Assembly: GCA_030248065.1 (NCBI GenBank)
Contig: JASAMV010005458.1
Span: 1 to 64,000, forward strand
Source of the DNA: Rhynchonema sp. JSB1_4
Lineage: Eukaryota; Nematoda; Chromadorea; Monhysterida; Xyalidae
Length of the DNA: 64,000 bases
Reading direction: 5' to 3'
This document shows, piece after piece, positions 12,218-63,420 of this stretch. The notes below the pieces were generated by a model. The model saw only the letters and a list, made by a program, of their open reading frames with translations. It was not told where the DNA came from and did not search any database. Every line of letters begins with the position of its first letter. Position 1 is the first letter of the stretch. The position numbers and the translations under genes were made by a program.

Positions 12218-12553
<336 letters not shown>

Positions 12554-16142: not shown

Positions 16143-16477
<335 letters not shown>

Positions 16478-39810: not shown

Positions 39811-39865
39811 CAAGGCTTAGGCTTAGCCTTAGGCTTAGGCTAAGGTTTTTATCAGGCTTAGGCTT
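39811..39865. repeat. Degenerate TTAGGC (nematode telomere-type) repeats
   Basis: GGCTTAGGCTTAG and inverse blocks in ~55 bp, in both orientations. Similar runs lie at ~6826-6868 and ~7769-7783. They are too short and mixed for a telomere and are best read as interstitial or element-borne copies. Confidence 0.6.
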
Positions 39866-40254
39866 AGACTATTAGTGTATACTCTGACAATACTTTTGCG
39901 AGAAACTTTTCAAGCGTGTTGCCTGATCCGTAAAGCACACGCAACTGGCGCAGCCAGCTGAGTTTCGTAGCATTTCGCAAATCGCTACGTTAGTCTTGTG
40001 TGTTGAGCGACCGGCAGTCACGTGACTGCTGCAGCTGAAACATGCATAATGAGCTTTACGGATCAGGCAACGCGTTTGAAGTGTTTCTCCTAAAAGTATT
40101 GTCGGGGTATACCTTACGGGGGACCTCCACCCCTCAGGAACTACACTGTTCCCATCCCAATACCCAATATAACGGAATCAAATCTGGAATGGAATGGAAT
40201 TAAAAATAGTTGAAATGGCCGGCAGGCCGGCGGCGCGTTCCGATCTGTGTCTTG

Positions 40255-40750
40255 CGACGATAGTAGAGGTGCTTTTTGGTTCCTACGGCCAAAACTATGT
40301 CCAATACACGTGGGTATAGGCGGGTACTTAGATTATTTTACCCCGAGCTGGCACATAGATTATTTTAATCAGTCAGACTGGCACATACAAGGCTGATGTT
40401 ACAAAGTACATACATGGTACCCCACGTACCTATGGTACCCTATGTACCTACGGTACCCAACATACATGGTACCCAACATGCATGGTACCAAATATACATG
40501 GTACCCAATATACGGTACAATATACAGTCACCATGGCACAGCATGGTACCCAACTGATAAGTATGTACCTATGTATGTATTATTTCTGGTACCCATGAAT
40601 GTTTGTCATCAAGGAAGTGCGTTAGCTGACGCTGGTACGTGCCATGTACGTGTGTGATCAATGCATATTGCGTGTGGATACCCTTCTTGGGGTAGTACCC
40701 CAAGCAGCGGCTTTGTGAAGCGATATAGAAACCTGGGCACTGCAACGGTT
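40255..40750. repeat. Left terminal inverted repeat of the mini-Maverick, with GGTACC array
   Basis: Pairs with 44865-45385. It contains about ten GGTACC/GTACC sites at 12-16-bp spacing (~40415-40560), each with an ACATACATG-like partner. Inside that are CTTGGGGTAGTACCCCAAG and the inner boundary CAACGGTT. Confidence 0.85.
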
Positions 40751-40920
40751 GGAGAAAATTTCATTCACACAATGAATGGTCAGAATCATCAGAATCGCTG
40801 TCAAACATTAAATGAGTAAAGAGTTCCACAGAATTATCACCATGTCCAGCAGGATTTATTGTTCCAACAGCAGGGAGATGACTGGGTCTTTCGAGATGAA
40901 CTTTAGTCATTGTCACTAAT

Positions 40921-41865
40921 TGTTCAGCGTGCACAGGTGTTCCCCTATCAAGCAAGAGAGCCAGCACAGTGGCTAAAGCGTTCGAAGAAATTGTGGCTCA
41001 AAATGATGGCGTGATCCCCGGGGCAATTATAACTGACAGAGGTACCCCTTTGCTGATCTCTGTACCGCAAAACATGACCAAACAAGGAAAAATTTCAGGC
41101 AATGAATTTCTCGATCTTCAAAAGTCACTTGAGAAACGAAACAGAAAACTGAAAATGACAAAATCCGATCAGAAATCTCCTCATTCCGAGCAAGCCATTG
41201 CACGAATACGACGCCTGTACAAAAAGTACCGGGCCTATTCAGGACGGGAAAATTTCAGTGAAGTATTTCCTCAGTTGATCAGTACACTCAACAGCACACC
41301 ATCGTCGTACTCGGGAATAGCACCAAATGATATCAACGCCAGCAATGCCGGACAACATTTTGCAAAAAAGTACGGCGACTATCTTGACAGGCTGTATTAG
41401 CATGCTTATTCCTCGAGTACACGCTATGCTGTTGGTGATGCGGTCCGAGTACGGTCGTTCCATCCGGATGGATTTGACAAGGCAAGCCACGTCACGTGAC
41501 AGGAATGTTGAAAATTTCGCAATTGTCATGGTTTTCAGACACCGGCCAACTCTGCTGAGGTATTTTATGTGAACCAGATTAGACGCACAGACCCTGCGAC
41601 CTATCGAGTTCGTGACCGAAACGGACTAGTCGTGGACAAAATTCAGTACGATCGGAACTTGGTGCCTGCCGAAAACCATGAACGTAACCATCGTGTCACA
41701 CGGGTGCTCGAAACACGTAAATTCGCCAACCTGGCACCAGGGATCGGAAAGCGCTGTTGGATGACGGAAGCGTGGAGTGGATGCAGCAACGTGATTACGA
41801 CAGAGCGCACAGGAATTTCACATGATGAGTCCAGCATCTGGCTTCGACCTTTTACTGCGCGCTGA
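40921..41865 (+). pseudogene. Retroviral-type integrase, 5'-truncated and interrupted
   Basis: This corresponds to the Maverick integrase, which would insert element DNA. An open frame starts within the block before 40969 (PLSSKRAS, then AKAFEEIV) and carries the second catalytic Asp (IITDRG, ~41030) and the Glu (SPHSEQAIARIRR, ~41185). YSGIAPNDI marks the core's end. The N-terminal zinc-binding region and the first catalytic Asp are missing. A TAG at 41398-41400 interrupts before the C-terminal SH3-like part (YAVGDAVRVRSF; EVFYVNQI; TYRVRDRNGLVVD). A probable intron ends at TTTTCAG (~41539). The last codons overlap the penton start by ~44 nt. Loss of a catalytic Asp means no activity. Confidence 0.7.
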
Positions 41866-42615
41866 CACGTCAGACATACACGATCAGAATCGTATTGATT
41901 TGGCTAATTCTTCTGTCACATTTGGTCTACCTGATCCTGTGGTGCTTCCTGCCAATGTTGCTTACACACTTAATCTGAGTCACATTTCGATGTCATTAAA
42001 AGTAAACAACATTGTTCGCCTTAATCATTTCTTTTATGCTTCATTGGATGGTGGTCAATCGTTCAAAGCTTTTTTATTGCCTCATGATTACTTTGAGACT
42101 AATATTGTTTTATTGCTTCGAAAATTCCAACAATTGCTGACTGCCGATTTTGACAACTACATTTCCATGAAGTTTGACAACATAACGGATATTGGTTATT
42201 GAGATCAAGGACGAACGGACTGTTTTAGTACTAAGCGATGATTTTAAGTTTCGCACCCAGGGACGTAAGCTTTGAGAAAGGATTTACATATGGAAGCTAT
42301 CCAGCTGATCTACTTTTGAGTTTTCGTGATTTGTTTGTTCTCATGCCGGGTGTCACAGCATCATCCACTGTCATTTCTAATTATTGCCCCATTGCTCGTG
42401 TTGTGCCAGTTGACAGCGATTTATTGAAAAAGGAAGCAAGGATTCAGCTGGAATTCAACCAACCTTTTCAAGTGCCACTCTATGTAAACACATTGCACCA
42501 TATTGAAATGATTTTACTTAATTCAGATTTCGCAACATTTTCTCTGGATGCCTCTGCACGCTTTGCCTGTATCTTGATGCTACAATGTCGACAGAATCTG
42601 ACCTTGCCGTTCTAA
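41822..42615 (+). pseudogene. Penton-like minor capsid protein gene with two frame shifts
   Basis: Two consecutive ORFs (41822-42202 and 42238-42615) plus a linking frame (~42201-42240) read like one Maverick/adintovirus penton protein, which forms the capsid vertices. The N-terminal part has the expected beta-strand pattern (DLANSSVTFGLPDPVVLPAN, then YTLNLSHISM). The C-terminal part has a DLFVLMPGV segment, a CPIARVVPVDSD segment and a final run of strands ending LPF. Each break shifts by one base, near 42200 and 42240, and no intron borders fit. Combined length (~260 aa) is in the usual range. The first ATG pair overlaps the integrase end. The call is by pattern; profile searching would settle it. 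Confidence 0.55.
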
Positions 42616-42627
42616 TAAACAATAAAT

Positions 42628-42888
42628 ATGGACATTTCGAAATCGTCTGTCCAACGTAAATTCACCAAGCAAGTTGAAAAAGCGCTCTCCGCGCAAATTG
42701 ATCAAGCAAACGCAGCCCCGTTGACTAATCCCGTTGATTTGGGATATTCTCGTGCAATCGGTGGCAATTTTCGGAACTACGAGACAATTCAGTTTACAAA
42801 ACCAAAAGGCAACAAGAAGAAGGCAAAACCAAAGCCAAAGAAACCAAAGTATCAAGAACGAGTCGCCATCGACAATCCTCTGGCATAA
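42628..42888 (+). CDS. Small basic protein of the mini-Maverick
   Basis: An intact 86-codon ORF starts MDISKSSVQRKFTKQVEKAL and contains a Lys/Pro-rich block (KGNKKKAKPKPKKPK, residues ~61-75). It lies 12 nt after the penton stop and ends 2 nt before the major capsid start, so the three form a tight gene cluster. The charge suggests a DNA-binding or core protein, or a nuclear-import signal, but there is no family match and this is inference. Unlike its neighbours it has no frame break. Confidence 0.6.
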   Translation: MDISKSSVQRKFTKQVEKALSAQIDQANAAPLTNPVDLGYSRAIGGNFRNYETIQFTKPKGNKKKAKPKPKKPKYQERVAIDNPLA

Positions 42889-42890
42889 CA

Positions 42891-44414
42891 ATGCCTCCAA
42901 AGAAACGCACCAAGGGTGTCCAGGAAGAACCGGCTGTCACGCAGCCTGTGGCGGAACTGAACTCGTTGAACTCGTCCTCACGTGAAGCAGTTCAAGCATC
43001 AGTGGTCAATCAGTAAACTCAGTACGTACTTCCCGTTAGCCAGTACTCGGCCAATTCGGTGATCGTATTCGAAATCAGTGCCAGTTCTACTCTGTTCACT
43101 GGGCCTCAGTTTTATCTGGAGATTTCTTTGACAATCGTCAATGGCGATTCCACTCCGCTTGACGACAAGGCAGAGGTCGCGCCATGCTCAAACTTTGGCC
43201 AAGCCATGTGGTCAGACATTGAGGTATGCGGACGGTTAAGCTCCATTTTTGCCAACTAATGAAAATCATGAAAATTGAAGTCCGAGCCAACCACATGCTC
43301 CTGACCCAACGTGCCGGTTTGCACGCGTACAAAAGCTGGATTAACACTGCCGTACTGACCAGCGCTGAAGAACTGGAAGGGCTGAACGTGCCGGGCATGA
43401 TCTTCTTGGTCGATCCCAGCATACGCCGAGGGAACAAAGTTGTTCGGACGTTCAAGAACGAATCAGTTGTATTTTATGCTGGACACTGAGATTTCTCATC
43501 AAGGTATGCCACCACTATGTTAAGTTGCGTACTGTTTTGTTATTCGCCCTGTTCCAGATCGCTTGATCCCAAATAACGTCTCATTGACCATCACTCTGCA
43601 TCCATCGTCCCCGTCGATCAGCCTGCCAAGTGGCGTTGACGCGGCGAAACGGAACCAAATTCTCAAAATATCGGATACTCGACTTTATTTTGTGCGATAT
43701 GAGCTCAATCCGTCTCTGTTTTTGCAGATAACATCTCAACTGGCTGTATCACCGTACCGGTACGTGACAGTGGCTGTTTCTGACTGTTTTTAATTGACTT
43801 TTACTCACAGAATCCCTCTACGTCGGCTGGAGTGTCAACCATACCTGAGACAATATGTTCAAATGCGATTCTCCCGACAACGGTCTATGTGATGAGTGTC
43901 CCATCAAAAACGTTCATGGGCTCGTACTCTCGCGAGTATGCACAGAGCAGCACTCTCGGCATGAATGCGATATACATCGTTTCCGAAGGATTGACATTTC
44001 CCGCTACACCTCTGGTGATGGACACGTCAACACCGAAATATGTTCGCAGCTATGCTAATTTGCTCCACGTATGTTTACACAGCAACTATGGCTGACAGGA
44101 ACATCATTCATTTCGTTTACAGGTAGCCGGTTGGACCAATTCAAAAGCTTCGTGCCCAGTGACTGCAAGAGCATTCATGGGTGGGTACTCTGCAGCCGCC
44201 ATAAATATGTCACGACTTGCATCAAACGAAGTGCGTTCGCTTCCCAAGTTCGGTTCCGCTGCCTTGCACATTTCGTACACCGCTGCACCTTCAGAATCGG
44301 TGACGTATGCTGTTTACGCGGTTAGTTTGCAGTGCAGCTTTGTCTTCTTGAAAAATTTTCAAATTTCATGGTTTTCAGGTGTACGAAAATCAGGTCATGA
44401 TTGATGCAAGTTAG
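42891..44414 (+). pseudogene. Double-jelly-roll major capsid protein gene (Maverick/adintovirus type), with introns
   Basis: The ATG at 42891 opens MPPKKRTKG. Signature segments then appear in family order: VFEISASSTLFTGPQFYLEI; PLDDKAEVAPCSNF (43059-43259); HAYKSWINTAV (~43325); SHQDRLIPNNVSLTITLHPS; ILKISDTRLYFVRYELNPS; LPTTVYVMSVPSKTFMGSY; TPKYVRSYANLLH; and a final VYENQVMIDAS before TAG. This is the trimer-forming hexon-like capsid of Mavericks and relatives, annotated in many invertebrates as F54H12.2-like. Four introns fit in phase: 43504-43557, 43776-43810 (or from 43764), 44069-44122 and 44321-44378. Breaks are TAA at 43014, a stop at 43257 with a frame change, and a one-base shift near 43476. 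Confidence 0.72.
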
Positions 44415-44864
44415 AGGTTAGTCTGGTTGTGCCTCTCACCGATGTTCTTTTATTCTTAGATTTTTGGTTTTTTCAGACTGACCGCCAATTTCGATGAAGG
44501 TATAAAAAATTCCAGTTTGGACACACACTCTCGACACAGACACACTCTCTCCTTATCAGTAGACACGCTCAGACTCACATGATTATTCTTGTTTCAGCGT
44601 GACTGTGTTGGTGATGACTCAGAGCTTTTTCATGAGCACCAAAGCCAAATGGAAGAATGTGACACGTAACGCCAGGCAAGTTTCGCAATACATGACAATC
44701 TTGTCGCAGATTGAATGTCATGCGTCGTGCCTTTTCTGGTGTGCAGCATGGTGTTCCCTGGCCGGCTGGTCTTAAAGAAACGTTGAATCTTTTAAATGAA
44801 ACCAGAAATCCTGGTCTTGTCAATCCATTTGTGCCCGTGCATGAGTTGCCTGAATAAAATGTCG
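44415..44864 (+). CDS. Candidate small spliced gene at the element's right end
   Basis: Two short ORFs (44614-44778, starting MTQSFFMSTKAKWKN, and 44720-44857, starting MRRAFSGVQHG) could be joined by a GC-AG intron (CCAG|GCAAGT to GTCGCAG). A further acceptor, CTTGTTTCAG, lies at ~44597. The second ORF ends ...PVHELPE just before AATAAAATG, inside the right inverted repeat border. No family recognised. Confidence 0.25.
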
Positions 44865-45385
44865 AACCGTTGCTGTGCCCAGGTTTCCATATCGCTTCAC
44901 AAAGCCGCTGCTTGGGGTACTACCCCAAGAAGGGTATCCACACGCAATATGCATTGATCACACAGGTACATGGCACGTACCAGCGTCAGCTAACGCACTT
45001 CCTTGATGACAAACATTCATGGGTACCAGAAATAATACATACATAGTTATCAGTTGGGTACCATGCTGTGCCATGGTGACTGTATATTGTACCATATATT
45101 GGGTACAATGTATGTTGGGTACCATGCAGATTGGGTACCGCAGGTACATTGGGTACCATGTACGTTGGGTACCGTAGGTACATTTGGTACCATGTATGTT
45201 GGGTACCATAGGTACTTTGGGTACTACATGTACTTTGTAACATCAGCCTTGTGTGTGCCAGTCTGACGAAGTAAAATAATCTATGTGCCAGCACGGGGTA
45301 AAATAATCTAAGTACCAGCTTATACCCACGTGTATTGGACATCGTTTTTGGCCGCAGGAACCAAAAAGCACATCTACTATCGTCG
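44865..45385. repeat. Right terminal inverted repeat of the mini-Maverick
   Basis: Inverse of 40255-40750, including the GGTACC array (~45050-45225) and CTACTATCGTCG end. It is ~25 bp longer than the left arm because the array carries more units. Confidence 0.85.
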
Positions 45386-45675
45386 TCTTGTATAGCATAT
45401 AAAGATAGCATCTTGACAAACCCTGTAGTGGTAGCACACCAGCTAACAATGCCAAAAATGTTTCGATTGTCGATGAAGTGGGGCCAGGTAAATGCAGTCG
45501 CGGACATCGGACACAATTTTTTCAATGTCTTCAGTCCGCAGTCCGCATGTGGCCGAGCATTTAGTATGGTTTAGCAGTACATCAGATTTACCAGCAAGTT
45601 GTGTCAGCGCATACGCGTTAGTGAAAAACCTTCAAAACTTAAAAATAACAATAAAAGCGAAAAAATCAAGAGTGA

Positions 45676-50529: not shown

Positions 50530-53500
50530 CTAGTGCTGCATGCCCGAGGACATGCCAGCACCACCCTGATCATGCTCATCACGACGACTCTGATGACCAC
50601 CACGTCCAAATCGCGGGTCACGCGACTTTGAACGATCACCACGTTGGTCACGTCGTTTCGCTGAGCTCGGTCGTGCCTCGTCCGGTTCACGCGATGCCGA
50701 CTGTTGTTTGGCACGCTTGCTGCGCCCCATCGCGGGCGGACCCTGAGGACCTTGTTGGCCCCAGCCACTTGGTCCAGCCGCACCTGACACATTTGGCGCT
50801 TGACCAGCCGGCAATGGTTGGTACACCTGTTTCGTTCGGTAACCCGCTGGCGGAAACTGCGCCCGCTGTTGCGGCTGTTGTTGTTGTTGTTGTGGCGGAT
50901 AAATGACTTGCTGCTGTGGTTGCTGCTGGCGCAATTGCTCCTGCAACGAAGCAATCTGCTGCTGCATCTGTTGCATCGCAGCACCACCACCCAGCGGCAC
51001 CAAGTTCGGACCACTCAACGGACCACGGCCGCCGCGACCTCCACGGCCGCCGCCACGACCACCACTGGCCGAACCACCACCTCCACGGGGTTGTCGCGCA
51101 TGCCATGGTTTGCGCGAACGCGACCTGCCACGACCCTGTCCCTTCGCCGGGAACCCACGTCGCGGTGGGATGTCGTTGTCGTCATACATGGCCAGTCCCG
51201 CAGTGGCACTACTCGACGTAGTCGCCACAGTACCGTGGGACGCCGGACGAACTGGTTGTTCTTCACGCGGTCGCTGAACATCGTGCGCCGACTGCGTACT
51301 TGTCGGCCTTCCACCCCCCTCCTGCTCTTGCGACTGACCCAGTCGCAGCAGGTGTGTGAGGAATTTCATGTAGTTCGTCTGGTCCAATTGCGTTGGATCG
51401 ACATGACTTCGATAGTCATCGATCTCAGTCACGAGACGTGCGTCCTCCCAATCAGCAGACTTGGCAACACCACCCAGATAGTCCTCAATGTCTTCGACAG
51501 ACACCCAGTTGCCATCCGGGCGTGTCAGTTTGTCACACGCCATCAGATCATTGCTCGGCCACGGTTCCATCGGTGGCGTGATCTGATAACACGATTCTTT
51601 CGCGTTCCACCACAAATAGGCCGCAAATATGCGCGAGAAATACACCAAGCGCATTTCCGAACCGGCCAACAATCGGTATCTCTGACCACTGGCCCTGTCC
51701 TCATACCACAATTGAGCGTAGAAGTCGCCCCACGGACATTTCGTGTGCGAATGAGCACACACTGCACAAATGCCGATATTCTTGCCCGTCCACGGGTACG
51801 GCAGTTTCGACACAAATGAATCGAGCAGTGTCAGATTTTGATAGTTCAGTTTTGCGCCTCGCAATTTCGTGGGCGCCTCGAGTTTGTTGTCCAAATTGGA
51901 CGTGCCCATCATGACATCTGCCACCTTCACCGGACCATGCCCATTGGTCTCATAGAATTCATCAATCCATGCCTCCAGTTCGTTCAGGTCACCGATCGGT
52001 TTCGGGCTGAGCATGAACGTCAAATGATGATTGCGCTGTCGCAGCTCAATCATCATGTCCACAATGCGGATCAACGCAGTGCGGCATTCGACCATTTTCG
52101 ACGTCCAAACCCCAAGGTAACGGCCCGTGTACACCTGATACCACATGCTACCAATGTTGGCATGACGGGCAGGTGTACCGATCGTGCTTTGGTACTGTTG
52201 GATCGTGCCCTGGAACTGACTGGGCTCAATGACCTCACGCGTGGCATCATCCAGCATGGGTTCATAGCATTGCGGATTGCAACATTCGTCCTGCTGTGCG
52301 TCGTCATTCCAATACACGTCAGCCGTGCAACGCACACAGCACTTGATACTTTGGAACACGACCCAGGGTACGGCGGGCATGTCGTACAGATTCATTTTCA
52401 CACCCGTATTAGGCGGCATTGTCGGGTATTTGGCCATATTGAGCTGCTCTTGCAAAGTCAGCTTGTTCCAACCCGACACACGTTCTTTGGCACTCAAGCC
52501 CTCTTTGTCCGGGTTCAACTGAACAGCGAATTGTGAGTACGGACGGCCCTCATAGTGGCCATGTGTCAAGCCCCGTGACAATGGGTCAACCAGGTTGTAC
52601 TCATCCATCACTCGAATGTAGATTTGCGATCGCGGTTTCAGAAATTTGAGTGACACGCGATATTCGGGTTTGAGTGTGGGGTCGTACCAGACCACATCGT
52701 CAGCCATTTGGGCATAGATCTCTTCATGCAAGGCCTCAAATCCGTCTGAGTCTGAACGGATTTCACCTGAGCCCTGCGATGGTGGTTCATTCACAGAATC
52801 CACGTCATCGGCCTCAGCCTGTGGCAACGGTGAGGCCTCCGGCTCTTCCATAGCCAGCTCACCACCGTGCACCGGTTCATCACCGATCATTCTGCGCTGA
52901 GCCTCAAACGTGCGCAGCTGTTGGTAACTGCGTTGCAACATGTTCACAGTTTCTTGTGGCTCGCAATTCATCAAGTCACCAGCTGACTGCAGCAGCTTGT
53001 ATGCCACGGTCGTGTCATCTTCGGCCTGTGCGCGCACTATCGTTTGGTATCGCTTGCCACACAGCGAAATCACTTGCTTAGCCCAATCACGGACTGGCGG
53101 ACTAGCATGATTCAGCAAGTCGACAATGGTCTGATATGAGGTCGGCACGCCCGGCGGCAAAGCAAATGCCTGGGCCATGTGCATGCCGATCAAGCAGTCA
53201 GCATGGGCCTCAATATTCGATTGAGTTGGTCGGCCAAATATGGTCGGCGTGTTTGGTGCCGACAATGGATCAGTCAACGGCATGGGCTTCAGCCGATGTT
53301 TCATGGCAGTGATTTGCGCATTCAAAATATCACACAGGCGCAACATCTCTTCGCCTTCAGCCTGCCAAATTTCCTTGTCCACAGCCTGAGCCATCATGAA
53401 CACCAAGTACAGATGGTACAGGGTCACTTCTGAACCCGCTGGCTCTGCGGACTGACTGACACGTTCAATCAACGTGCGGGCTTTGTCGACCCAAGCCTTG

Positions 53501-56500
53501 ACGTCCTGTTTTGACTGCGGGATATCGTCCCATTTCAACTTGAACTGTTCGAACGTGACAAGTCCGAACTCGCTTTCGCGCTGTGGCATTGTCTGACGTG
53601 CCTTGCGCAACCGTTCAGCACACGAATCAGCAGCCTGATCATCAGGTTCAGCTGTCGTGAACACGACCTCACCAGCGTCGGTTTTGTTCACCAGAGCCTG
53701 CGCCATCTTGCGCACCGAATAAGCGCTCAAGCCACAGGTCGGCTCGTTCTGTTCATGCCGAATGGAATTGTCGGCCAACGCCAGCGCGGCTTGCAGCGAA
53801 CTGCCAAGCTCCTCCAGTGAACCCAGTGGCAACCTGGGCGAGTCACCAGTGTATCGTGGTGGCCAATCTGTCTGACGATTGAACTGATATGCCGGCAGAT
53901 TTTTCAAGTGACCGGCCAATTGCATGTAAATGCCACACACGGTCACGCGTTTCAGCTCCTCAGTCTTGGCCGGCATACTCATGTAGCCGCGCGACAGTGG
54001 ATTGTGGAGCCGTTTGTGATGACCATAACGCAGGTCATGCAGCACAAAGAAGGCAAAATTCAGTTCCTTCAAGTCAGCGTCAGTGACCACTTTCTGATGC
54101 ACTGCACCACCGGTCTTTTTGTACCATTTCGCGGGCACTTTGGTACGTGTCTGATTGTACCTCAAACGGAACAACTTGCGTTCCTCATCCTGATCAGACA
54201 CCGAATCCTGCTTGCTCGTCGGCACACAGTCCTTCAGCAGACGTGGCTTTTTCATGTGCAACAGATGCACATTGCCGACACTTTGTGGGACCACTGTCTG
54301 GTTGTCATATTTCAGTGCCAATGTTGCATAGGCCAACTGCACCGTCGTGGTGTATCGCTCACCACTCAGAAACGGCAGTTTGGACGTCTCCAAATAGTCA
54401 CTCATGGCATCTGACGCCAGTATCATGGACATGTGCTGTGTGTGTTCGATCGGTTTCATGAAATCGATCTCGGGAACACCAAACTCAACCCGATCATTCG
54501 TGATGGCAGCCGTACGTTTGCTTTCAAGCATGGCTGGTTGTTCGTTCAGTCGGCCCGCAGCCGACGCCAGCACATATGCATTGCCACACACAAGCGGCAC
54601 ATTGATCTCGGGGTCAATCTCGAACCCGGTCCACATGTGCATTTTGTACTCCTGCGCCTGATCCGAAGAACAGAGCGCCACAGCCACGTGATTGCACACC
54701 AGTTGTGTGTAATTCGAGTTGTCAGACGTGGCGAAGTACATGACCGGTGTACTGTCAAACGGTTCGGTCAGACCTTGCGAGTCAATCGCAATGTATGGGG
54801 ACCGAAATTCCTCCACCGGCGCACCACTTCGGTACAACGATCGCTTGTACACGTTCGGCTTCATCACATTCATGTACAGCGGGCCAGCCAATCTCGACTC
54901 GGCCGCATGGTTGAGCAAGGCGAAACAGGCCATCGGGTCCCGTTCACCTGCGGTGTTCAGACTGTCCTCCACGCCCACTGTGCTGATGGGCTGCATCAGT
55001 TCACAACACACGTGCACGCTGCGCAAATAATACTGCAGCATCAGATCACCAGCCTCCAGCAACAACGCTGTGGTAGGCACTTTTGATGGGTCCCTGGTGC
55101 CCATGACTGCGGTACTGATCTTAGCACCAGCCAAATTGCAGAATTCACGGCCCACTTCGACAATACGCAGCTCAACCTGCTGTCGATCCAGTGGCTTGTT
55201 TGTGGCCGTCATTTCGTCTGTCAAGATTTTGGAGAACGATTTTGCACAGTGCAACACTGTGGCCAGCACCAGGTCGACAGGTGCCTCGTTCTCGCGCCAC
55301 GCGATTGGTTGTTGTTTCAGGTCTTGTTTGAAATCATCACGTGCGTTCAGCAGCACATCAGGTGCTTCAACACCATTCATGCACGTGAGTGGATTGGTCA
55401 AGCGTCCACTTTCAACGAACTGCAGCATGGTTTGCAGCGAACCACGCAAAGGACGCATAATTTCGTCATCGTACCGTTTCGGGTCACACACAGCAAGCAC
55501 GTACATGCAATCAATGCCCTCTTGCACGTCTTGTGCGGCATACCAGTACTTGCACTGTGTGGATTCGTCGTTCAAATTGCCCATGTGCATACGGTCCAGC
55601 CAGCCAGCATGGTACATGTCTGCACCCGGCACCTCACCGGCCGTATAGGCAAAATCACACGGTTTATTTTCAAGATACGTGCTGCTCGTATAGCGACGCA
55701 TCTTGTCTTTCTGGGCCTTCATCGTGTGGCTGTCACGCATGATATGCAATGTGCCCAATGTCATCATTTGGTGCGATGGGCCACCATGTTCTTCATTCAT
55801 GCTCATGGACATTGGCAGTTTGCGCGAATCAAACACGATCGCGGACATATCACAGCCAAATGCGCGAGCAAACGCAACCTGATCACCGTGTTTGCGATTG
55901 CGACGGTCCTGATCATGGGTACCGTGCATATAGAACACGCCGGCGTTCTGTAGGTCATTCACCGACGGATCGTCACAAAACAGCTGCTTGAACTCATCAC
56001 ACGGTTCGTCTGAGCCAGGTTTGTTCACACAACCGGCCTCAATGATCCACACGACACCTGTGAAGAATGCCACCTGCAGCAGCACCAGAATGTCGTAATC
56101 ACACCATTCCTCTGTCGTGGTGTGAATCACCTCGTGTGTGGTCCAGTAGGGCAGCACGCCCCACTTCTCCATGCACATGTGCATGAGCAGCTCGTTCGCA
56201 CTTTTGGTCTTCTTTTTCAGTGCCGTGAAGAAGCTCGTGTCGAAATCTGTGGACTGGAAGTGATCGAATTCAGCATCGATCATGGCACCTCCCAGCATTC
56301 GACGAGCTCGCATGGCGATCTTTGTGAACTCGACAAAATGGTCATATGAGTCCACCACAATGACCTGTTTGATCACGCCCAGTGGCCTACGTGCGGCCAA
56401 CATGCACTGATACCAGCTCATGATCAGATTATACATCATCGTGATCTTGGCTGATGTGTTTTGGGCACGCGCACCATATTCCAGCGTGACAATGCCCTTC

Positions 56501-57741
56501 AAGGCAGTCACCATGTATTTGTGCGTGTTTTGAATGCCGATGTAACTGGCTGCCTGTTCCATCTTGTGCAGCACTGCCTGCAGCACTTCAGTCGACAGTT
56601 CACGAGCCGTACACGCCAAGTACAGCACTCGTGTGTTTTCGAACATTTTGGCCATGCCCCGATATGAGTTCGGCACAGCGCACGGCTCATTGGTGTTTGC
56701 AGCATTGCACGCACCATCCCAGCCCGTGCGCATCGGGTCCAACATAGCCAGATGGTGATTCGGCATTCGTTTGTTGACCGAGATCACACCCGGTTTCATG
56801 GCATCGAACCAACCGATTTTGTTGTTCTTGGTATCGCGACCAAAGAAACCTTTTGTGGCCACGGTCATGTGGTCCACTTGTCGCAAATCGGTATTTTTCT
56901 CACGTTCGATCTCACTGAACGGCACTGGCAGCATGTGCCCGGTCGACAGAGCCTCCTGACGCTCCTCATAGCGCCGGCTGATGTTCAAACCGTCAACCGG
57001 TTTGTGGCGTTGTGCGCGTCCGAACAGGTCCACCTGACCAATGTGCAACACTTTGCACAAACGACGCAAACGCAACAACGGGCTGCCTGCAAACACGCCC
57101 CGCAACCAGTCACTGTGGATGCGGTCGGGCTGTTTGTCATTCACCATCACCATTGGTCGATTCAGTGGGTCCGGGTCCCAAAAATTCACCTCTGACGACC
57201 CGGGGGCCCGGTCCATCTTGCGGTACTGTTCCAGTTTCAGACCCAGTCGGTGCAACGGCTCACCGCTGAGCGTCACAGTGCCTTGTGGTGTCTGGAATTT
57301 CATCACACCAGCACCTTGCGAGTTAGCAACACTCGCACCTGGGGCAGGTTCATGTGCCCCGGCACTGGGATTCGGCACCACTTCCATCTGAGTCTCGGTG
57401 CCCGCACTGGCACCTGCGGTCGAACTGGAACTCGTTGTCACCGGGTCGGTGTGGGTGACGGACTCCCCGGCAGCAGCCTGCAGCTGCTCCTGAGTCACTT
57501 CCATGTCAGCCTCTTCACCACCGCCCAACAAAGCCTCTTCTTGCTCTGCAGTCAACCCCGTCTCACCTGGATCTGCGCGTTTTCGAGACCTCGATCTTTT
57601 GTCCCGTTTGCTCATCTCGGCTCGCCTCTTGCTGTCCAACGATGTTGTTGTTTTCACAGCGCTTGACGTCACAAAATCGAATGCGATAAAATGATAGCAG
57701 CAATCGAATTTTGACTCTGCAAAAGTGAAATGAAACATCAT
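50530..57741 (-). CDS. Giant intact 2403-codon ORF of unknown family
   Basis: The ORF is uninterrupted for 7.2 kb on the same strand as, and downstream of, gypsy Pol. The ATG at 57613-57615 (MSKRDKRSRSRK) is a more natural start than the first ATG. Residues to ~150 are low-complexity. A long globular region of ~1400 residues follows, without recognisable polymerase, protease, helicase or nuclease motifs. Two Cys clusters may bind metal: CCVRCTADVYW...CCNPQC (~1800-1825) and GICAVCAHSHTKC (~1990-2003). The last ~250 residues hold an RGG block, a Gln-rich coiled stretch (MQQMQQQIASLQEQL) and an RS-rich end, typical of RNA-binding tails. No signal peptide or membrane helix was seen, so it is not an obvious envelope. 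It could be a structural (capsid or nucleoprotein-like) product of an element or an integrated RNA virus. That is inference; I do not recognise it. Confidence 0.75.
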   Translation of the reverse strand: MMFHFTFAESKFDCCYHFIAFDFVTSSAVKTTTSLDSKRRAEMSKRDKRSRSRKRADPGETGLTAEQEEALLGGGEEADMEVTQEQLQAAAGESVTHTDPVTTSSSSTAGASAGTETQMEVVPNPSAGAHEPAPGASVANSQGAGVMKFQTPQGTVTLSGEPLHRLGLKLEQYRKMDRAPGSSEVNFWDPDPLNRPMVMVNDKQPDRIHSDWLRGVFAGSPLLRLRRLCKVLHIGQVDLFGRAQRHKPVDGLNISRRYEERQEALSTGHMLPVPFSEIEREKNTDLRQVDHMTVATKGFFGRDTKNNKIGWFDAMKPGVISVNKRMPNHHLAMLDPMRTGWDGACNAANTNEPCAVPNSYRGMAKMFENTRVLYLACTARELSTEVLQAVLHKMEQAASYIGIQNTHKYMVTALKGIVTLEYGARAQNTSAKITMMYNLIMSWYQCMLAARRPLGVIKQVIVVDSYDHFVEFTKIAMRARRMLGGAMIDAEFDHFQSTDFDTSFFTALKKKTKSANELLMHMCMEKWGVLPYWTTHEVIHTTTEEWCDYDILVLLQVAFFTGVVWIIEAGCVNKPGSDEPCDEFKQLFCDDPSVNDLQNAGVFYMHGTHDQDRRNRKHGDQVAFARAFGCDMSAIVFDSRKLPMSMSMNEEHGGPSHQMMTLGTLHIMRDSHTMKAQKDKMRRYTSSTYLENKPCDFAYTAGEVPGADMYHAGWLDRMHMGNLNDESTQCKYWYAAQDVQEGIDCMYVLAVCDPKRYDDEIMRPLRGSLQTMLQFVESGRLTNPLTCMNGVEAPDVLLNARDDFKQDLKQQPIAWRENEAPVDLVLATVLHCAKSFSKILTDEMTATNKPLDRQQVELRIVEVGREFCNLAGAKISTAVMGTRDPSKVPTTALLLEAGDLMLQYYLRSVHVCCELMQPISTVGVEDSLNTAGERDPMACFALLNHAAESRLAGPLYMNVMKPNVYKRSLYRSGAPVEEFRSPYIAIDSQGLTEPFDSTPVMYFATSDNSNYTQLVCNHVAVALCSSDQAQEYKMHMWTGFEIDPEINVPLVCGNAYVLASAAGRLNEQPAMLESKRTAAITNDRVEFGVPEIDFMKPIEHTQHMSMILASDAMSDYLETSKLPFLSGERYTTTVQLAYATLALKYDNQTVVPQSVGNVHLLHMKKPRLLKDCVPTSKQDSVSDQDEERKLFRLRYNQTRTKVPAKWYKKTGGAVHQKVVTDADLKELNFAFFVLHDLRYGHHKRLHNPLSRGYMSMPAKTEELKRVTVCGIYMQLAGHLKNLPAYQFNRQTDWPPRYTGDSPRLPLGSLEELGSSLQAALALADNSIRHEQNEPTCGLSAYSVRKMAQALVNKTDAGEVVFTTAEPDDQAADSCAERLRKARQTMPQRESEFGLVTFEQFKLKWDDIPQSKQDVKAWVDKARTLIERVSQSAEPAGSEVTLYHLYLVFMMAQAVDKEIWQAEGEEMLRLCDILNAQITAMKHRLKPMPLTDPLSAPNTPTIFGRPTQSNIEAHADCLIGMHMAQAFALPPGVPTSYQTIVDLLNHASPPVRDWAKQVISLCGKRYQTIVRAQAEDDTTVAYKLLQSAGDLMNCEPQETVNMLQRSYQQLRTFEAQRRMIGDEPVHGGELAMEEPEASPLPQAEADDVDSVNEPPSQGSGEIRSDSDGFEALHEEIYAQMADDVVWYDPTLKPEYRVSLKFLKPRSQIYIRVMDEYNLVDPLSRGLTHGHYEGRPYSQFAVQLNPDKEGLSAKERVSGWNKLTLQEQLNMAKYPTMPPNTGVKMNLYDMPAVPWVVFQSIKCCVRCTADVYWNDDAQQDECCNPQCYEPMLDDATREVIEPSQFQGTIQQYQSTIGTPARHANIGSMWYQVYTGRYLGVWTSKMVECRTALIRIVDMMIELRQRNHHLTFMLSPKPIGDLNELEAWIDEFYETNGHGPVKVADVMMGTSNLDNKLEAPTKLRGAKLNYQNLTLLDSFVSKLPYPWTGKNIGICAVCAHSHTKCPWGDFYAQLWYEDRASGQRYRLLAGSEMRLVYFSRIFAAYLWWNAKESCYQITPPMEPWPSNDLMACDKLTRPDGNWVSVEDIEDYLGGVAKSADWEDARLVTEIDDYRSHVDPTQLDQTNYMKFLTHLLRLGQSQEQEGGGRPTSTQSAHDVQRPREEQPVRPASHGTVATTSSSATAGLAMYDDNDIPPRRGFPAKGQGRGRSRSRKPWHARQPRGGGGSASGGRGGGRGGRGGRGPLSGPNLVPLGGGAAMQQMQQQIASLQEQLRQQQPQQQVIYPPQQQQQQPQQRAQFPPAGYRTKQVYQPLPAGQAPNVSGAAGPSGWGQQGPQGPPAMGRSKRAKQQSASREPDEARPSSAKRRDQRGDRSKSRDPRFGRGGHQSRRDEHDQGGAGMSSGMQH

Positions 57742-58832
57742 TTTGTGCTGTCACGCACAAACATCACAGCAAAATAAACGCGCGAGCGGACAATGTGGGC
57801 TGCCGCAATTCTTTTCACAAGCCGCCTCGACCGGCATAATGGCTTTTTAAGTGCTCCCCGCACAACAGCGTCAGCCACACATCGCGTGAGCGATCTGCAA
57901 GCCAAATTCACGGCTCTCAAAAGGAACGCCCTCTTTCTGGCCTCAAAATGTGGAACTGCAACACTGCAGCCGTTCGTGGCCACAGACAGAACGAATAAAT
58001 GGGTGCCTCAGTGACTGAGACTGCCGGGCCCGGGGGTAGTACTCCCCCCAGAGCCCTTTCAACCCAGTCCTAGGCAAAACACGCCCAAAAATTAATGTTC
58101 CGCCCGTTTTCACAGACTGCCACAGCAGAAATAGCCGTTTTCCTTACAATTTTGAGCCGAAACGTGGGCAAAACGTTCGGGCCGGAGTGGCCAACTCCCG
58201 GCCTTTCGGGGTTTTTCGACCTCGCACGTCTGCGGAAACGAAAAACAGAGCAAAACTCAGCTCCCCCCCCAGTTGCGCAACACCAACGCAACTTTTCACA
58301 GGCTTTTGCGGCATTTCAGTGGCATCGGCCCACCTCTCCCTGCGATCCAGCGGGATTCCTGCGATCTAAAACGTTATTACAAACAAAATGAGAAAAGCAA
58401 AATGCGAAACGAAAAGGAATATTCATCGTCCTTTTTCGCAGAATTTCTCTTTCTTTGTTTTGCAATTTACGGTCCACGGACCGTAAAGTCTCGTTTCGGT
58501 GCGTCACTTTCCATGCGTCTGGGGTCACCACACCTGCAGTGGGGATAACGCATTCGCACATGCAAACAAAACATGGCGCACGTAAGCGCCAACAAAACAG
58601 AACTGAAACATCAGTTAGTTCAACGCAAAAAGGCTCGTTTCGACAGAGCCAACGCAAAATTTAACGAAAATAACAGACACAGCCCGAGCAAAGGGCTGGT
58701 CAAACATAAAATAACGTGGCAAACGCAACAAAATAAAGTCAAACTCAAACATAACGTATAAAATGATAAAATTATAAGCAAAATAAAATGTGTACTATAT
58801 ACAATATGTACAATTTTGCTCCTCCGTCAGAG
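57742..58832. other. Interval between pol and the giant ORF
   Basis: Non-coding as far as visible. It holds the pol 3' motif (58803-58815) and TACGGTCCACGGACCGTAAAG (inverted TTTACGGTCC/GGACCGTAAAG, ~58468-58490). An LTR of the pol element would be expected here, but no partner repeat exists in the window to prove it. Confidence 0.4.
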
Positions 58833-61800
58833 TTACTGCTCCGACGCGTCCGTGCCCCGCAAGTTGTAGCGCGCATTCGACTTTCTGCCGCTTTTCACAA
58901 CTTGCTTCAGCTGAAACTTCTGCGTTTCGGGCACATACACAACCGAGTGACCAGTCCACACCTGTTCATGCGAAATCTCGTCAGCGCAACGCGAGATTTT
59001 ATCGAGATTCACTGTGAATCGCTGGGTATCACCCTCATCCAGCCGATACACCTCGATCGTGTTGTTTCTGAACACGCGCGTCACCATGAACGGACCGGTG
59101 TGACTGCGAGCGAACTTGTAGTCCTCGCCTTTGGCCACTTTCGGGTCATACACCCAGACCCGTTCACCAACCACAATCGGTTTCAATTTCGCCTCGGCTT
59201 TGGCGCTCATTCGTTTGTGCCTGAGCTCGACTTTGTCCAGTCCGAGCTGCACTTCGCGGTAGATTTCGGGAATCGAGCGCACCATTCGGGTCACATAGTC
59301 CGGATTGTCATTGTACTTCTGCAGTACACATTCGTCAAACACCGTGTTGGCCGGCAGACGCATCGGTCGACCATGCTCGACGAAGAACGGACTCAGACCG
59401 GTGCTCACTTGTGGCACGGCATTGTAGTACAGAAGCACCATCGGCAGCACTTCGTCCCAGTCACTGTTGCCAGGCGGCAGCGCGCGCGCCAGCATGTTGA
59501 TGATCGTCTGATTGGCTCGTTCAACCAAGCCATTGGACTGGGGGTGGTATGTGGTCGTCACGTTGTGCTTCACACCAAACGCGACATTTATGCCCTCGTG
59601 CAGTTTGCCTGTGAACTGTGCGCCCTGGTCTGTGACGCACACGCGCGGCACGCCGTGTTCACGAATGTACTGAATGTACATATCAATCACGGTCTCAGCG
59701 GCCATGTCCGGCATCGGATAGGCATTGACGTACTTCGAAAACGCGTCAACCAGGACCAGCAAATAGACATTGCCCCTTGACGTCATCGGCTTCAACGTCA
59801 GAATGTCCATGTGCACTCGTTCGCTCGGCGCGAACGTTCGTTCCAACGAACCAATCGGCGGTTTCAGCCGTCGATGCTGACCCGACACAGTGGCACAGTC
59901 AAAACACGATGCGTAGTGTTTGGACGCGTCCTTTAGCATTCCCAGCCAATGGAACTCGCGCCTCAGCCACATGGTCATCTTATCGACGCCGAAATGACCA
60001 CCCAGTTCATGCACCTCCTTCAGCAGGTCCTGTTGCATGCTTTTCGGCACACACAACTGCACTCGACCACCTTTGTCATACACGTGCCGAATGATGTTTG
60101 TGTCGTCCACAAAGTATTCACCGAAATGCTTTTCGATGTACTTGTCAAATTCGGTTTCCGGCTCGGGCAGCGGTTTCAACGGATGCTCCAGCTTGAGCTT
60201 CAACCGCGCCAAGAATTCATCGCCGGCTTGTTGTTCGATGATCTTGTCACGAACATCGGTACTGACCTCTTCGGTCGTTTTGCCGGTCAGCTCGACGTGC
60301 ATGTCATTCGCGTCAGGCACGTCATCGTTCTCTGGGATCGTCGTCAGCGACGGTGCCTGTTTGATGCGACGTCGACGCATGCCGACTTTCATCACCGTGA
60401 CGTTCTCGCATTCGTCACGCAATTGTCTGAGGTCCGCCTCTTTCGTGATCGGCAGACAGTCACCATCAGACGCGCAGTCACAGCGCACTTTGCTCACGTG
60501 CGCCACGAGATCACCCTCGTTTTCGGCTTCATCGAACAGCTCATCGACGTCAAACTCGATGTCGTCATCGTCAAACTCGTCGTTCGACCAATAATCCGAG
60601 TCACAGTCAGACTCGTCAGCAGCACACGAATTCACAGCCACATCAGCAGGCTCGGCAGAGTTCTTTTCCTGCCATTCGATCGCCTGCTGTTCGGACTCTT
60701 TGATCATTCGATCGATCTCGTTCCGAAACCAGTTGGCACGATCGATCTTGTCTTGCGGATCGTGCAGATCTTTTGGAATTCGGCTGAGGCAGTCGGGCAC
60801 ATGATTGCCACGACCGGGCGTGTACACCACTTTTGGGTTCATCATCGCGATGCTGGTGACCCACTTTTCGACACGCTTGTTGCCTCGCATGCGCTGATTC
60901 ATGCAATCCTGCATGGCAACATGGTCAGTCACGACCAAAATGTCATGTCCACGCAGATAATTGTCGAACTTGTCCAGAGCCCACTTGATGGCCAGACATT
61001 CGAGTTCGGTCGCGCTGTAATTCGACTCAGCGGCGTTGGTGGCGCGTGATGCATAGGCCACCGGATGCAGTCTGTCATCCGAACCGATCTGTTCGAGCAC
61101 AGCACCCAAGCCAGCCGAGCTTGCATCCGTGCGCACCACCCATGGTTTATCCATGTCGGGATAGACCAACATGACGGGTTCACTCGTCAATCTGCGCTTC
61201 AACTCTTTGAACGCTTCATCCTGCTGCTTGGACCAGCGGAATTGTTCATCGACCTTCATCAGTCGGTTCAGCGGCGATGCGATCTTCGAACAGCCGGGAA
61301 TGAACTGTCGGTAGAAGCCGACCATTCCCATGAAGCGACGCACGCCCTGTTTGTTCACCGGCGGCTTCATGTCACAAATTGCCGCCACTTTGTCCGGATT
61401 CGGGCGAATGCCCTCGGCGTCCAACACGAAGCCCAGATATTTGACTTCGGACTGCAGGAAGTTGCATTTCTTCGGCTGCATCAGCAAGCCGGCCTCTTCC
61501 AACCGTTCAAACACACGTTTCAGCACCTCCATGTGCTCCTCGACAGTCTGGGTCGCGACAATCACGTCGTCCAGGTACACGAACACCCGTGTGTCAAAAT
61601 CGCGGAACACACGATTCATGATGCGCTGGAACACCGGCGGGGCGTTCGACACGCCCATCGGCATCATATTGTACACAAATGTGCCGAACGGTGTTGAAAA
61701 TTGGGTCTTGTGTTTATCATCGGGATGAATACGGATCTGATGGAATCCTGAGAACAGATCCATCGTGCTGAAGACCCGTGGCTTGCCAGCGCCAATCAAA

Positions 61801-62525
61801 CCGAGTATTTCCTGCGGTCGTGGCAGGGTGTATTTGTCTTTGATCGTGATCGCGTTCAATTTGCGATAATCAACGCAAATTCGCAGACTGCCGTCTTTCT
61901 TTATGATCGGCACGATCGCGAAGCACCAATCACTGTCTGACGGTTCAATAATGCCGGTGCGCATGGCCTTAACCTCAGGCGATGGGGGTGTCGGTTCAGT
62001 GAACTCGCGTTCGATCGGGTTTCCGGCCCGAATCGACTCGGGATCTGGATTCACGCAGCCGAAAGGCTTGCAGATCGGCACATCACTGCGCACTTTGTAG
62101 TTGTCAGGTGTGTACATTTCGGCATTTCGAGGCTCGGGCATTCGACAGCAGTTGGCGGCCATCATGCCAACCAACTCTTCGGCATTCATTCCCAACATGA
62201 TGTCCATGTCCGAGTCGTTGCGCAGATTAACGGCAAAAGCCAGAAAACTGTATCGAGGTTCGTCCTCGACACCAACGATCACGCGCAACATCACAAACGG
62301 ACCGGACATTTCGCTTGCCATTGCATTGTACGACGTCAAACCGACCTCAGGCAAGTGGTCAAGTCTGGGCACTCGATAGCCCCATTGCCGTTCCAAGTCC
62401 TGTAGTGCCTGATGATTGATGATGATGATATTACAGCCGGAATCAGCCAGCATTCGTGAGGACGTCCCCTCAACGAAACCATGCACATAGGACCGAAACG
62501 CACCCGTGCGTTTAGGCCAACGCAC
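58833..62525 (-). CDS. pol: Ty3/gypsy Pol: protease, reverse transcriptase, RNase H, integrase
   Basis: Intact 1230-codon frame; the start listed is a GTG. The frame is open ~58 nt further 5' (CPPYEQCKW) before reaching repeat DNA, so the true N-terminus is lost. Retropepsin-like LADSGC at ~28 uses DSG rather than DTG. RT (~190-380) has FSTMDLFSGFHQIRI and VYLDDVIV (~316). RNase H has RTDASSAGLGAVL (~467), LECLAIKWALD and VVTDH. After a very acidic linker (~640-665) comes integrase with an HELGGH...CFDC zinc site (~832-878), Asp in MDILTLKP (~904), Asp in VTDQGAQF (~966) and Glu in GLVERANQ (~1003). A GPF-type module (HTGPFMVTRVF) and a basic tail follow. All catalytic residues are present. 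It belongs to the same family as the Gag ORF at 885-4571. Confidence 0.95.
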   Translation of the reverse strand: MRWPKRTGAFRSYVHGFVEGTSSRMLADSGCNIIIINHQALQDLERQWGYRVPRLDHLPEVGLTSYNAMASEMSGPFVMLRVIVGVEDEPRYSFLAFAVNLRNDSDMDIMLGMNAEELVGMMAANCCRMPEPRNAEMYTPDNYKVRSDVPICKPFGCVNPDPESIRAGNPIEREFTEPTPPSPEVKAMRTGIIEPSDSDWCFAIVPIIKKDGSLRICVDYRKLNAITIKDKYTLPRPQEILGLIGAGKPRVFSTMDLFSGFHQIRIHPDDKHKTQFSTPFGTFVYNMMPMGVSNAPPVFQRIMNRVFRDFDTRVFVYLDDVIVATQTVEEHMEVLKRVFERLEEAGLLMQPKKCNFLQSEVKYLGFVLDAEGIRPNPDKVAAICDMKPPVNKQGVRRFMGMVGFYRQFIPGCSKIASPLNRLMKVDEQFRWSKQQDEAFKELKRRLTSEPVMLVYPDMDKPWVVRTDASSAGLGAVLEQIGSDDRLHPVAYASRATNAAESNYSATELECLAIKWALDKFDNYLRGHDILVVTDHVAMQDCMNQRMRGNKRVEKWVTSIAMMNPKVVYTPGRGNHVPDCLSRIPKDLHDPQDKIDRANWFRNEIDRMIKESEQQAIEWQEKNSAEPADVAVNSCAADESDCDSDYWSNDEFDDDDIEFDVDELFDEAENEGDLVAHVSKVRCDCASDGDCLPITKEADLRQLRDECENVTVMKVGMRRRRIKQAPSLTTIPENDDVPDANDMHVELTGKTTEEVSTDVRDKIIEQQAGDEFLARLKLKLEHPLKPLPEPETEFDKYIEKHFGEYFVDDTNIIRHVYDKGGRVQLCVPKSMQQDLLKEVHELGGHFGVDKMTMWLRREFHWLGMLKDASKHYASCFDCATVSGQHRRLKPPIGSLERTFAPSERVHMDILTLKPMTSRGNVYLLVLVDAFSKYVNAYPMPDMAAETVIDMYIQYIREHGVPRVCVTDQGAQFTGKLHEGINVAFGVKHNVTTTYHPQSNGLVERANQTIINMLARALPPGNSDWDEVLPMVLLYYNAVPQVSTGLSPFFVEHGRPMRLPANTVFDECVLQKYNDNPDYVTRMVRSIPEIYREVQLGLDKVELRHKRMSAKAEAKLKPIVVGERVWVYDPKVAKGEDYKFARSHTGPFMVTRVFRNNTIEVYRLDEGDTQRFTVNLDKISRCADEISHEQVWTGHSVVYVPETQKFQLKQVVKSGRKSNARYNLRGTDASEQ

Positions 62526-62554
62526 CCACTTGCATTGTTCGTACGGCGGACAAT

Positions 62555-63420
62555 AGCGCGAGTTGTGATAGTACCAAAAAAATTAATATGGTCCTAAATT
62601 AGAGCCAAGGCGTTTATGAAACATTTATGACCACACAGCACACAAAGAACATGCCAAACCAGATCGGTATTTTAATTTCAATGTGCGGTGGTAGGGTCAA
62701 AATTTTTTACCTTTCAGCCCTCCGGGCCATATATATACGACCAAAACCAATCTCATTGAAACTTGGCACGGTAACTGGGTTTGGTCCAAAACACTTACGG
62801 CCAAGAAATTTTTTCCCCATATCAGCTCCCTGTCTGAGCCCGGGCGGCCAAAAGTTGAGAAGTAGGGAGCCGACCTCCACACAATAAAGTTGAAATATTC
62901 GGTGCGTTGCATGAGTTCTTGCTATACCAATTAACGTAGTTTTTTACAAACGCTTGGGCTTTTATTTGGTGTCACATTCAATCCGATGGCACTACCATAG
63001 CTCGTGCTATGTTGCCAAGAAGACTCAAATTTGACAGAAAATTTTTTCAGGTGTATTTTTGGACCACTTGCCATCCAAATAAAGGTAAACCATCAATGTG
63101 GCCAGAAAGCCCCATTACCAGCCCAATAATTCGTTTTGGTTTCAATTTTTGATGCACGATCAGTCTCGAGAGAAGTTAGCTCAATTGTGACCGGTCTCCA
63201 TTTTTTTGGTCATATCCTGGTCATCAAATTTACCCTTGTCTGCAGCTTTTCTACATGATAATAATGTTGTGAACGTATTACAAATACAAATTCTGGTAGC
63301 AGTAATGCAGCTGTTTTCAGCACAATACAAAACAAACTCGGATCGCATGTAACTTTGATGTAACGGTTCATAAACGCATTTTTTCAAAAGGATCGGAATT
63401 TTCCACAAATTTTTGGCTGT
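62555..63420. mobile_element. Family A/E repeat fragments abutting pol
   Basis: GCGCGAGTTGTGATAGTACC onward matches the arm of family A (compare ~29545-29700). From ~62730 the sequence turns to the E-type arm (ACCAAAACCAATCTCATTGAAACTTGG onward, compare 36695-37480). The junction with pol at ~62553 removes the element's upstream part. Confidence 0.65.

What the first reader, a model, noticed from the sequence alone, without database searches (positions are those of the whole stretch)
40255..45385. A 5.1-kb miniature Maverick/Polinton that kept its capsid genes
Seen: ~500-bp inverted repeats, TCTTG on both sides, and integrase, penton-like, basic and double-jelly-roll capsid coding in one compact plus-strand block. 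Known: Mavericks and adintoviruses are usually at least 15 kb and carry PolB, ATPase and protease, and non-autonomous derivatives usually lose genes wholesale. Inference: internal deletion left a virion-structure module under mobile ends, a configuration resembling a packaging parasite or a capsid donor.
Basis: partly seen in the sequence, partly recalled or inferred. Interest (0 to 1): 0.88.

Follow-up and report, generated by a model that had tools for sequence, protein, structure and literature searches.

The report
Broken Maverick relic lacking DNA polymerase
A 5.1-kb stretch is the decayed, internally deleted remnant of a virus-like mobile element; its capsid genes are broken, but it belongs to a family that had already lost its DNA polymerase while keeping capsid genes under selection, which suggests satellite-like elements that carry their own shell and borrow replication.

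Summary
The outline holds: 40255-45385 has ~0.5-kb terminal inverted repeats, TCTTG on both sides, and plus-strand remnants of integrase, penton-like, basic and capsid-like genes. But the capsid genes are not "kept". Allowing for introns shared with relatives, penton and capsid frames are broken, and the integrase is truncated with an in-frame stop. Against a 95%-identical relative in the same genome (C745) the copy lacks about 58 bp and 1.1, 1.2 and 1.2 kb, including the protease and ATPase-like genes. No other scored copy spans these junctions: one dead deletion copy, not a miniature family. The family is the surprise. Its 9-11-kb members carry integrase, penton, capsid, protease and ATPase-like genes but no PolB; at 16 of 18 right ends the last gene runs straight into the terminal repeat (two unread). 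Capsid dN/dS is 0.11-0.14 in three of seven comparisons, 0.26-0.95 in the others, and some copies are 98-99% alike over 2-3 kb. The genome also holds a 22-kb PolB-carrying Polinton with a near-identical tip and a 5-bp duplication. Best reading: non-autonomous Polinton derivative, probably replicated by PolB in trans (inferred).

The parts
40250..40254 (.). left target-site duplication TCTTG
   Evidence: sequence
40255..40764 (+). left terminal inverted repeat; contains a GGTACC-rich tandem array at 40408-40513
40843..40904 (.). left deletion junctions: about 58 bp and about 1.1 kb lost relative to C745 (upstream 201-aa ORF and first part of integrase)
40903..41496 (+). integrase remnant, matching residues ~106-302 of the relative's 302-aa ORF; the conserved Asp76 lies in the lost part; in-frame stop at 41398-41400
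   Evidence: rve match of the relative
41569..41822 (+). integrase C-terminal region, after a proposed short intron; frame broken by a non-triplet indel
41822..42609 (+). penton-like gene remnant (268 aa open in C745); two non-triplet indels here
42628..42888 (+). small basic protein, ORF open, 86 aa
42891..44414 (+). major-capsid-like gene remnant with four proposed short introns shared with C745; two non-triplet deletions in exons
44493..44499 (.). deletion junction: about 1.2 kb (protease and ATPase-like genes) lost relative to C745
44499..44723 (+). remnant of the region after the ATPase-like gene
44714..44857 (+). last 47 codons of a conserved 277-aa late protein (p277), behind a third ~1.2-kb deletion (junction 44721-44723); the right repeat follows directly, where the PolB-carrying relative has PolB downstream
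44862..45385 (-). right terminal inverted repeat; tandem array at 45095-45237
45386..45390 (.). right target-site duplication TCTTG

Best explanation
The feature is a single, decayed deletion copy of a non-autonomous Polinton/Maverick family. Shown: the family's terminal repeats and a 5-bp duplication bound it; its body is 95% identical to a relative in an 11-kb element but has lost four internal stretches; its integrase, penton and capsid frames are broken; and the family itself lacks PolB, the right repeat following directly after the last conserved gene wherever the end could be read. Inferred: the ancestor inserted by integrase (its own then, or a relative's) after its linear DNA was copied from the ends by the PolB of a co-resident full-length Polinton with related ends, such as the 22-kb C4107 element; the window copy was then deleted and eroded, probably in place. 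It makes no capsid and moves, if at all, only by help in trans.
For: TIRs and TSD. 79 TIR matches in the genome, two of them the window's own. Blastn map to C745 with the missing stretches; 1744 + 1888 aligned columns at 95%. No other scored copy spans the junctions. Frame lesions beyond the shared introns. The gene order INT-penton-basic-MCP-protease-ATPase-p143-p257 is conserved in C4107, which adds PolB (PF03175, E 3.7e-12; protease PF00770, E 8e-4, just under its cut-off). Right ends without PolB: 16 of 18, the other two unread. PolB search: 57 matches (55 of 93 candidates scored); 3 of 29 TIR-bearing contigs also hold one, none between a TIR pair that I could define. C4107: 21,980 bp, TIRs 99.4% alike, TSD GAAGC, tip CGACGATTGT against CGACGATAGT in the window. 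A PolB-less member, C3196, carries the outer half of a C4107-type repeat at 84%.
Against: The MCP and penton assignments rest on gene order and homology to other elements of the same genome. PolB help is not shown. Several family copies have tips reading CGTCGTCTAT, not CGACGAT; both ends were compared in three copies (window, C745, C4373) and only the window shows a clean duplication. The assembly holds palindromic copies, so the 18 right ends are not all independent. In C2918 and C1705, which hold PolB, no left repeat could be paired. Four of seven dN/dS comparisons are not low. It cannot be told whether the deletions came before or after insertion.
Confidence: 0.8

Rival explanations
1. The family moves without PolB, by cut-and-paste with its own integrase, like Ginger-type transposons; capsid genes are cargo.
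For: Integrase with a weak rve match and no polymerase inside the readable ends; recent copies at 98-99%. Ginger transposons with a Gypsy-like integrase are described in PMC2836005 (title and start of abstract seen; that they lack PolB is recalled).
Against: Low capsid dN/dS in three of seven comparisons among family copies is not expected of mere cargo; long TIRs and a tip resemble those of a PolB-carrying relative. Excision footprints were not looked for, and one search with a flank found no empty site.
Confidence: 0.15
2. The 5.1-kb element is an active packaging parasite or capsid donor.
For: TIRs and TSD present; one open basic ORF; capsid exons show some constraint relative to C745 (dN/dS 0.26).
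Against: Penton and MCP frames broken, integrase truncated; no same-junction copy among those scored.
Confidence: 0.03
3. The family is half of a two-part genome: PolB sits on a second element with the same ends.
For: Hybrid ends: C3196, C4864 and C59 have outer repeats of the C4107 type together with window-type sequence further in.
Against: No PolB lies between a definable pair of these TIRs (55 of 93 candidates scored).
Confidence: 0.07
4. PolB loss is an artefact of assembly or of one segmental duplication.
For: Palindromic copies in several contigs.
Against: Alignments of the right ends of C745, C2918 and C5044 stop at or before the end of the repeat; C3196 has the same arrangement at a synonymous distance of 0.34.
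Confidence: 0.05

Closest known systems
Polinton/Maverick (polintoviruses)
   Same: Long TIRs, 5-bp TSD, rve-type integrase, adenain-like protease in the family (by homology to C4107, whose PF00770 match is just under the cut-off), gene order of the morphogenesis block
   Different: No PolB in the family; window copy 5.1 kb with broken genes; proposed short introns in integrase and MCP, whereas intact vertebrate Mavericks are reported as intronless with 6-bp TSDs and 12.7-24.6 kb (PMC8097293, passages)
Co-resident 22-kb PolB-carrying Polinton, C4107:28825-50804
   Same: Homologous integrase, penton, basic, MCP, protease, ATPase-like, p143 and p257 genes in the same order, 5-bp TSD, nearly the same tip
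   Different: Carries PolB and about 10 kb more on the right; proteins about 30-60% identical in matched parts
Tlr elements of Tetrahymena
   Same: Capsid genes and rve integrase without PolB; once proposed as non-autonomous Polinton derivatives (PMC4028283, passages)
   Different: Tlr encode a superfamily 1 helicase instead; no replacement replication gene was recognised here
Adintovirus-like and Polinton-like viruses without PolB
   Same: Virion proteins of this class occur in genomes that lack recognisable PolB (PMC11071296, passages); a large fraction of Polinton-like viruses use non-PolB replicases (PMC12220804, passages)
   Different: Those lack the integrase as well or carry another replicase; here the integrase is kept and no other replicase was recognised
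Degraded Maverick fossils
   Same: Frameshifts, stops and gene loss; 96% of vertebrate loci are degraded (PMC8097293, passages)
   Different: Here the PolB-less form is shared by many copies, some 98-99% alike over 2-3 kb

Membership tests
Polinton/Maverick, autonomous | terminal inverted repeats | tested here: met
Polinton/Maverick, autonomous | 5-6-bp target-site duplication | tested here: met
   TCTTG, 5 bp; 5-6 bp is stated for Polinton-like viruses in PMC12220804 (passage), 6 bp for vertebrate Mavericks in PMC8097293 (passage)
Polinton/Maverick, autonomous | retroviral-type integrase | tested here: inconclusive
   family member rve E 2e-4, C4107 E 1.5e-5, both under the Pfam cut-off; the window copy is truncated and broken
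Polinton/Maverick, autonomous | protein-primed PolB | tested here: not met
   no room for it in the window or at 16 of 18 family right ends, two unread; no match between a definable TIR pair
Polinton/Maverick, autonomous | adenain-like protease and packaging ATPase | tested here: not met
   deleted in the window copy; family members have homologues of the C4107 genes, whose own Pfam matches are under the cut-offs
Polinton/Maverick, autonomous | double-jelly-roll MCP and penton | tested here: inconclusive
   homology and gene order only; Pfam, PHROG, PDB and fold tests gave no usable match
Amplified miniature (MITE-like) family | several insertions sharing the same deletion form | tested here: not met
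   no other scored copy spans the junctions (40 of 58 candidates scored, 27 of 27)
Adintovirus | PolB and hexon both recognisable by sequence | tested here: not met
   PolB absent; definition from PMC11071296 (passage)
Ginger-type transposon | integrase-only element without capsid genes (recalled) | tested here: not met
   capsid-like genes present

The most novel reading that the evidence does not exclude
The parent family is a lineage of Polinton satellites in reverse: they carry integrase, protease, ATPase and both capsid genes, kept the capsid genes under selection, lack PolB, and are copied by the PolB of a larger Polinton whose end sequences they share and exchange, much as virophages bring their own shell but depend on another virus. 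The window copy is a dead member.
Probability: 0.4. Interest if true: 0.75.

Novelty: new variant of a known kind. Interest (0 to 1): 0.5.

Why it matters
Polintons are defined as self-synthesising. A lineage that dropped the polymerase but kept a selected capsid module would show that shell genes are worth keeping when replication is borrowed, and would make the question whether Polintons form virions and package relatives testable by sequence. The window copy alone is ordinary genomic debris.

Tried and rejected
Rejected: active 5.1-kb parasite (broken frames, no same-junction copies among those scored). Rejected: that every ORF break is decay; short GT-AG stretches explain the breaks shared with C745 and, at one site, with C4107. 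Rejected: that the similar sizes of the large deletions mean a common insert; the lost pieces are not alike. Led nowhere: protein database searches (0 hits; 2503 and 4077 candidates); four scans of viral contigs with penton, PolB, integrase and capsid alignments (43, 81, 124 and 56 pattern matches, none confirmed); PDB profile searches with four alignments (best E 0.27, 0.42 and 0.52, and no match for the protease); two single-sequence folds of separate window penton pieces, mean pLDDT 41.8 and 36.2, not searched further; the left flank as a route to an empty site (one search found only a MITE). Literature: the eight searches were seen as listings (one found no paper), and passages were read in six papers (PMC8097293, PMC6431247, PMC11071296, PMC4028283, PMC4981718, PMC12220804). 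In what I saw there was no PolB-less Polinton family that keeps integrase and capsid genes, other than Tlr; no paper was read whole, only open-licence papers are held, and two founding papers that I asked for were not held. Not done: host identification.
Full report
What is there. The window is contig C3362 of a 204-Mb assembly with 5747 contigs. At 40255-45385 two inverted repeats face each other over 5.13 kb. Globally aligned, 496 columns are 94.0% identical with gaps left out (K2P 0.063); BLAST, counting gaps, gives 87%. TCTTG lies directly outside both ends, and the tips read CGACGATAGT...ACTATCGTCG. Each repeat holds a GGTACC-rich tandem array. The left repeat has 79 matches in the genome, two of them the window's own; this is a lower bound, as 40 of 77 candidates were scored.

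Relatives. Protein pieces of the window find long-ORF relatives: the penton-like piece is 97% identical to C745:58313-58681, the capsid piece 97% to C745, C2918 and C5044, and the integrase piece 89% to C745 and C1805. The C745 element (55441-66613) reads: repeat, 201-aa ORF, integrase (rve E 2e-4, under the cut-off), integrase C-terminal region, penton-like 268 aa, basic 90 aa, MCP-like, adenain-like protease, ATPase-like, p153, p277, repeat. Part of its penton-to-MCP block is duplicated.

Deletions. Against C745 the window is collinear at 95% identity (1744 + 1888 aligned columns) but lacks about 58 bp and 1.1 kb near 40843-40904, about 1.2 kb at 44493-44499 and about 1.2 kb at 44721-44723. 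These remove the 201-aa ORF and about the first 105 residues of the integrase ORF, the protease and ATPase-like genes, and p153 with most of p277. Searching the genome with the junction stretches gave 72 matches (40 of 58 candidates scored) and 44 matches (27 of 27); apart from the window itself none spans a junction. So there is no sign that the 5.1-kb form was amplified.

Introns and decay. The MCP frame breaks seen in C745 recur in C2918 and C5044, and at one site in the divergent C4107 and C108; conserved protein sequence resumes after a stretch with GT-AG ends, about 50 bp in C745 and longer in C4107, so these are read as introns (no RNA evidence). The window shares them. Beyond the introns it has its own lesions: an in-frame stop in the integrase, a non-triplet indel in the integrase C-terminal region, two in the penton and two in MCP exons. 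Some of these genes have open frames in other copies. Integrase residue D76, invariant in 4 of 4 aligned integrases, two of which are nearly identical, lies in the lost part.

The family lacks PolB. In C4107, a divergent element of the same genome, the same gene order ends with p257 (34% identical to p277, E 2e-37) and is followed by a convergent PolB. In the window's family p277 is followed by the right repeat. Some of the 18 lie in palindromic contigs and are not independent. A search with the C4107 PolB ORF gave 57 matches (55 of 93 candidates scored). Of 29 contigs with family repeats three also hold PolB: C745, outside the element; C2918 and C1705, where no left repeat could be paired. 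No replacement replication gene was recognised.

Constraint. Pooled capsid exons (MCP and penton pieces) of C745 against seven others gave dN/dS: C5432 0.12 (bootstrap 0.07-0.18, 677 codons), C3196 0.11 (0.05-0.20, 209), C5044 0.14 (0.04-0.26, 510), window 0.26 (0.17-0.38, 418), C4748 0.52 (0.16-1.78, 249), C1918 0.54 (0.34-0.86, 237), C2918 0.95 (0.00-1.85; 4 differences in 460 codons). C3196 has the PolB-less right end like C745, at a synonymous distance of 0.34, so the constraint there postdates the loss if the loss happened once. Single genes also gave values near or above 1 between some close pairs, for instance the ATPase-like gene of C4748 (1.05) and C1136 (1.45) and an MCP piece of C5044 (1.74 over 44 codons). 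C745 and C1805 are 99.4% identical over 2.2 kb, and C745 and C2918 98.2% over 2.9 kb, with 94% over the right end; alignments of the right ends of C745, C2918 and C5044 stop at or before the end of the repeats. The C745 repeats are 99.2% alike. So PolB-less copies spread recently, unless assembly palindromes mislead.

Possible helper. C4107:28825-50804 is 21,980 bp, with repeats 99.4% alike, TSD GAAGC and tip CGACGATTGT. Its repeat matches 41 places, its own two included, among them the right end of the PolB-less C3196 copy (84% over the outer half) and C4864 and C59, which also carry sequence like that just inside the window's left repeat. Ends have thus been exchanged or inherited between PolB-carrying and PolB-less elements. 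That PolB acts in trans is inference. Against it, several family copies show other tips.

Prior work. Polintons without PolB are not unheard of in neighbouring groups: Tlr elements carry capsid genes and integrase with a helicase (PMC4028283, passages), and adintovirus-type virion proteins occur in genomes without recognisable PolB and integrase (PMC11071296, passage). What I saw contains no family that keeps integrase and capsid genes and has no recognised replicase.

Verdict. The window feature is a dead, internally deleted, non-autonomous Polinton derivative. The interest lies in its family.

Noticed in passing
39877-40112: A short inverted-repeat element (63-bp arms, 86%) lies just left of the Polinton relic; 39 other places match it over 227-241 bp, a lower bound since 40 of 1311 candidates were scored. 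It sits beside AGGCTT repeats (39813-39867).
   Followed up: partly
58836-62582 minus, with a 2406-aa ORF at 50533-57750 minus: Retroelement pol with RT, RNase H and integrase domains, next to an unusually long ORF without a Pfam match at E 0.01.
   Followed up: partly
888-4607 minus: 1240-aa ORF with zinc knuckles, gag-like.
   Followed up: partly
18925-19161 and 19843-20078: Two 72-bp tandem arrays whose consensus units look like reverse complements of each other, 0.7 kb apart: possibly the ends of another element.
   Followed up: no
12218-12553 and 16148-16476: Perfect (GTA)112 and (AC)164 microsatellites.
   Followed up: no
L057 (C4373:4950-9400); L063/L064 (C2918:82900-104800): Palindromic copies of family ends: C4373 is an inverted duplication of the left end including its flanks, and C2918 shows mirrored ORFs and repeats over about 21 kb; real fold-back products or assembly artefacts.
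   Followed up: partly
C4957:25-21704: Many matches to the ATPase-like gene on both strands in one contig.
   Followed up: no
genome G000: Many divergent PolB genes (57 matches), so several Polinton families seem to live in this genome, some with long uninterrupted PolB frames.
   Followed up: partly
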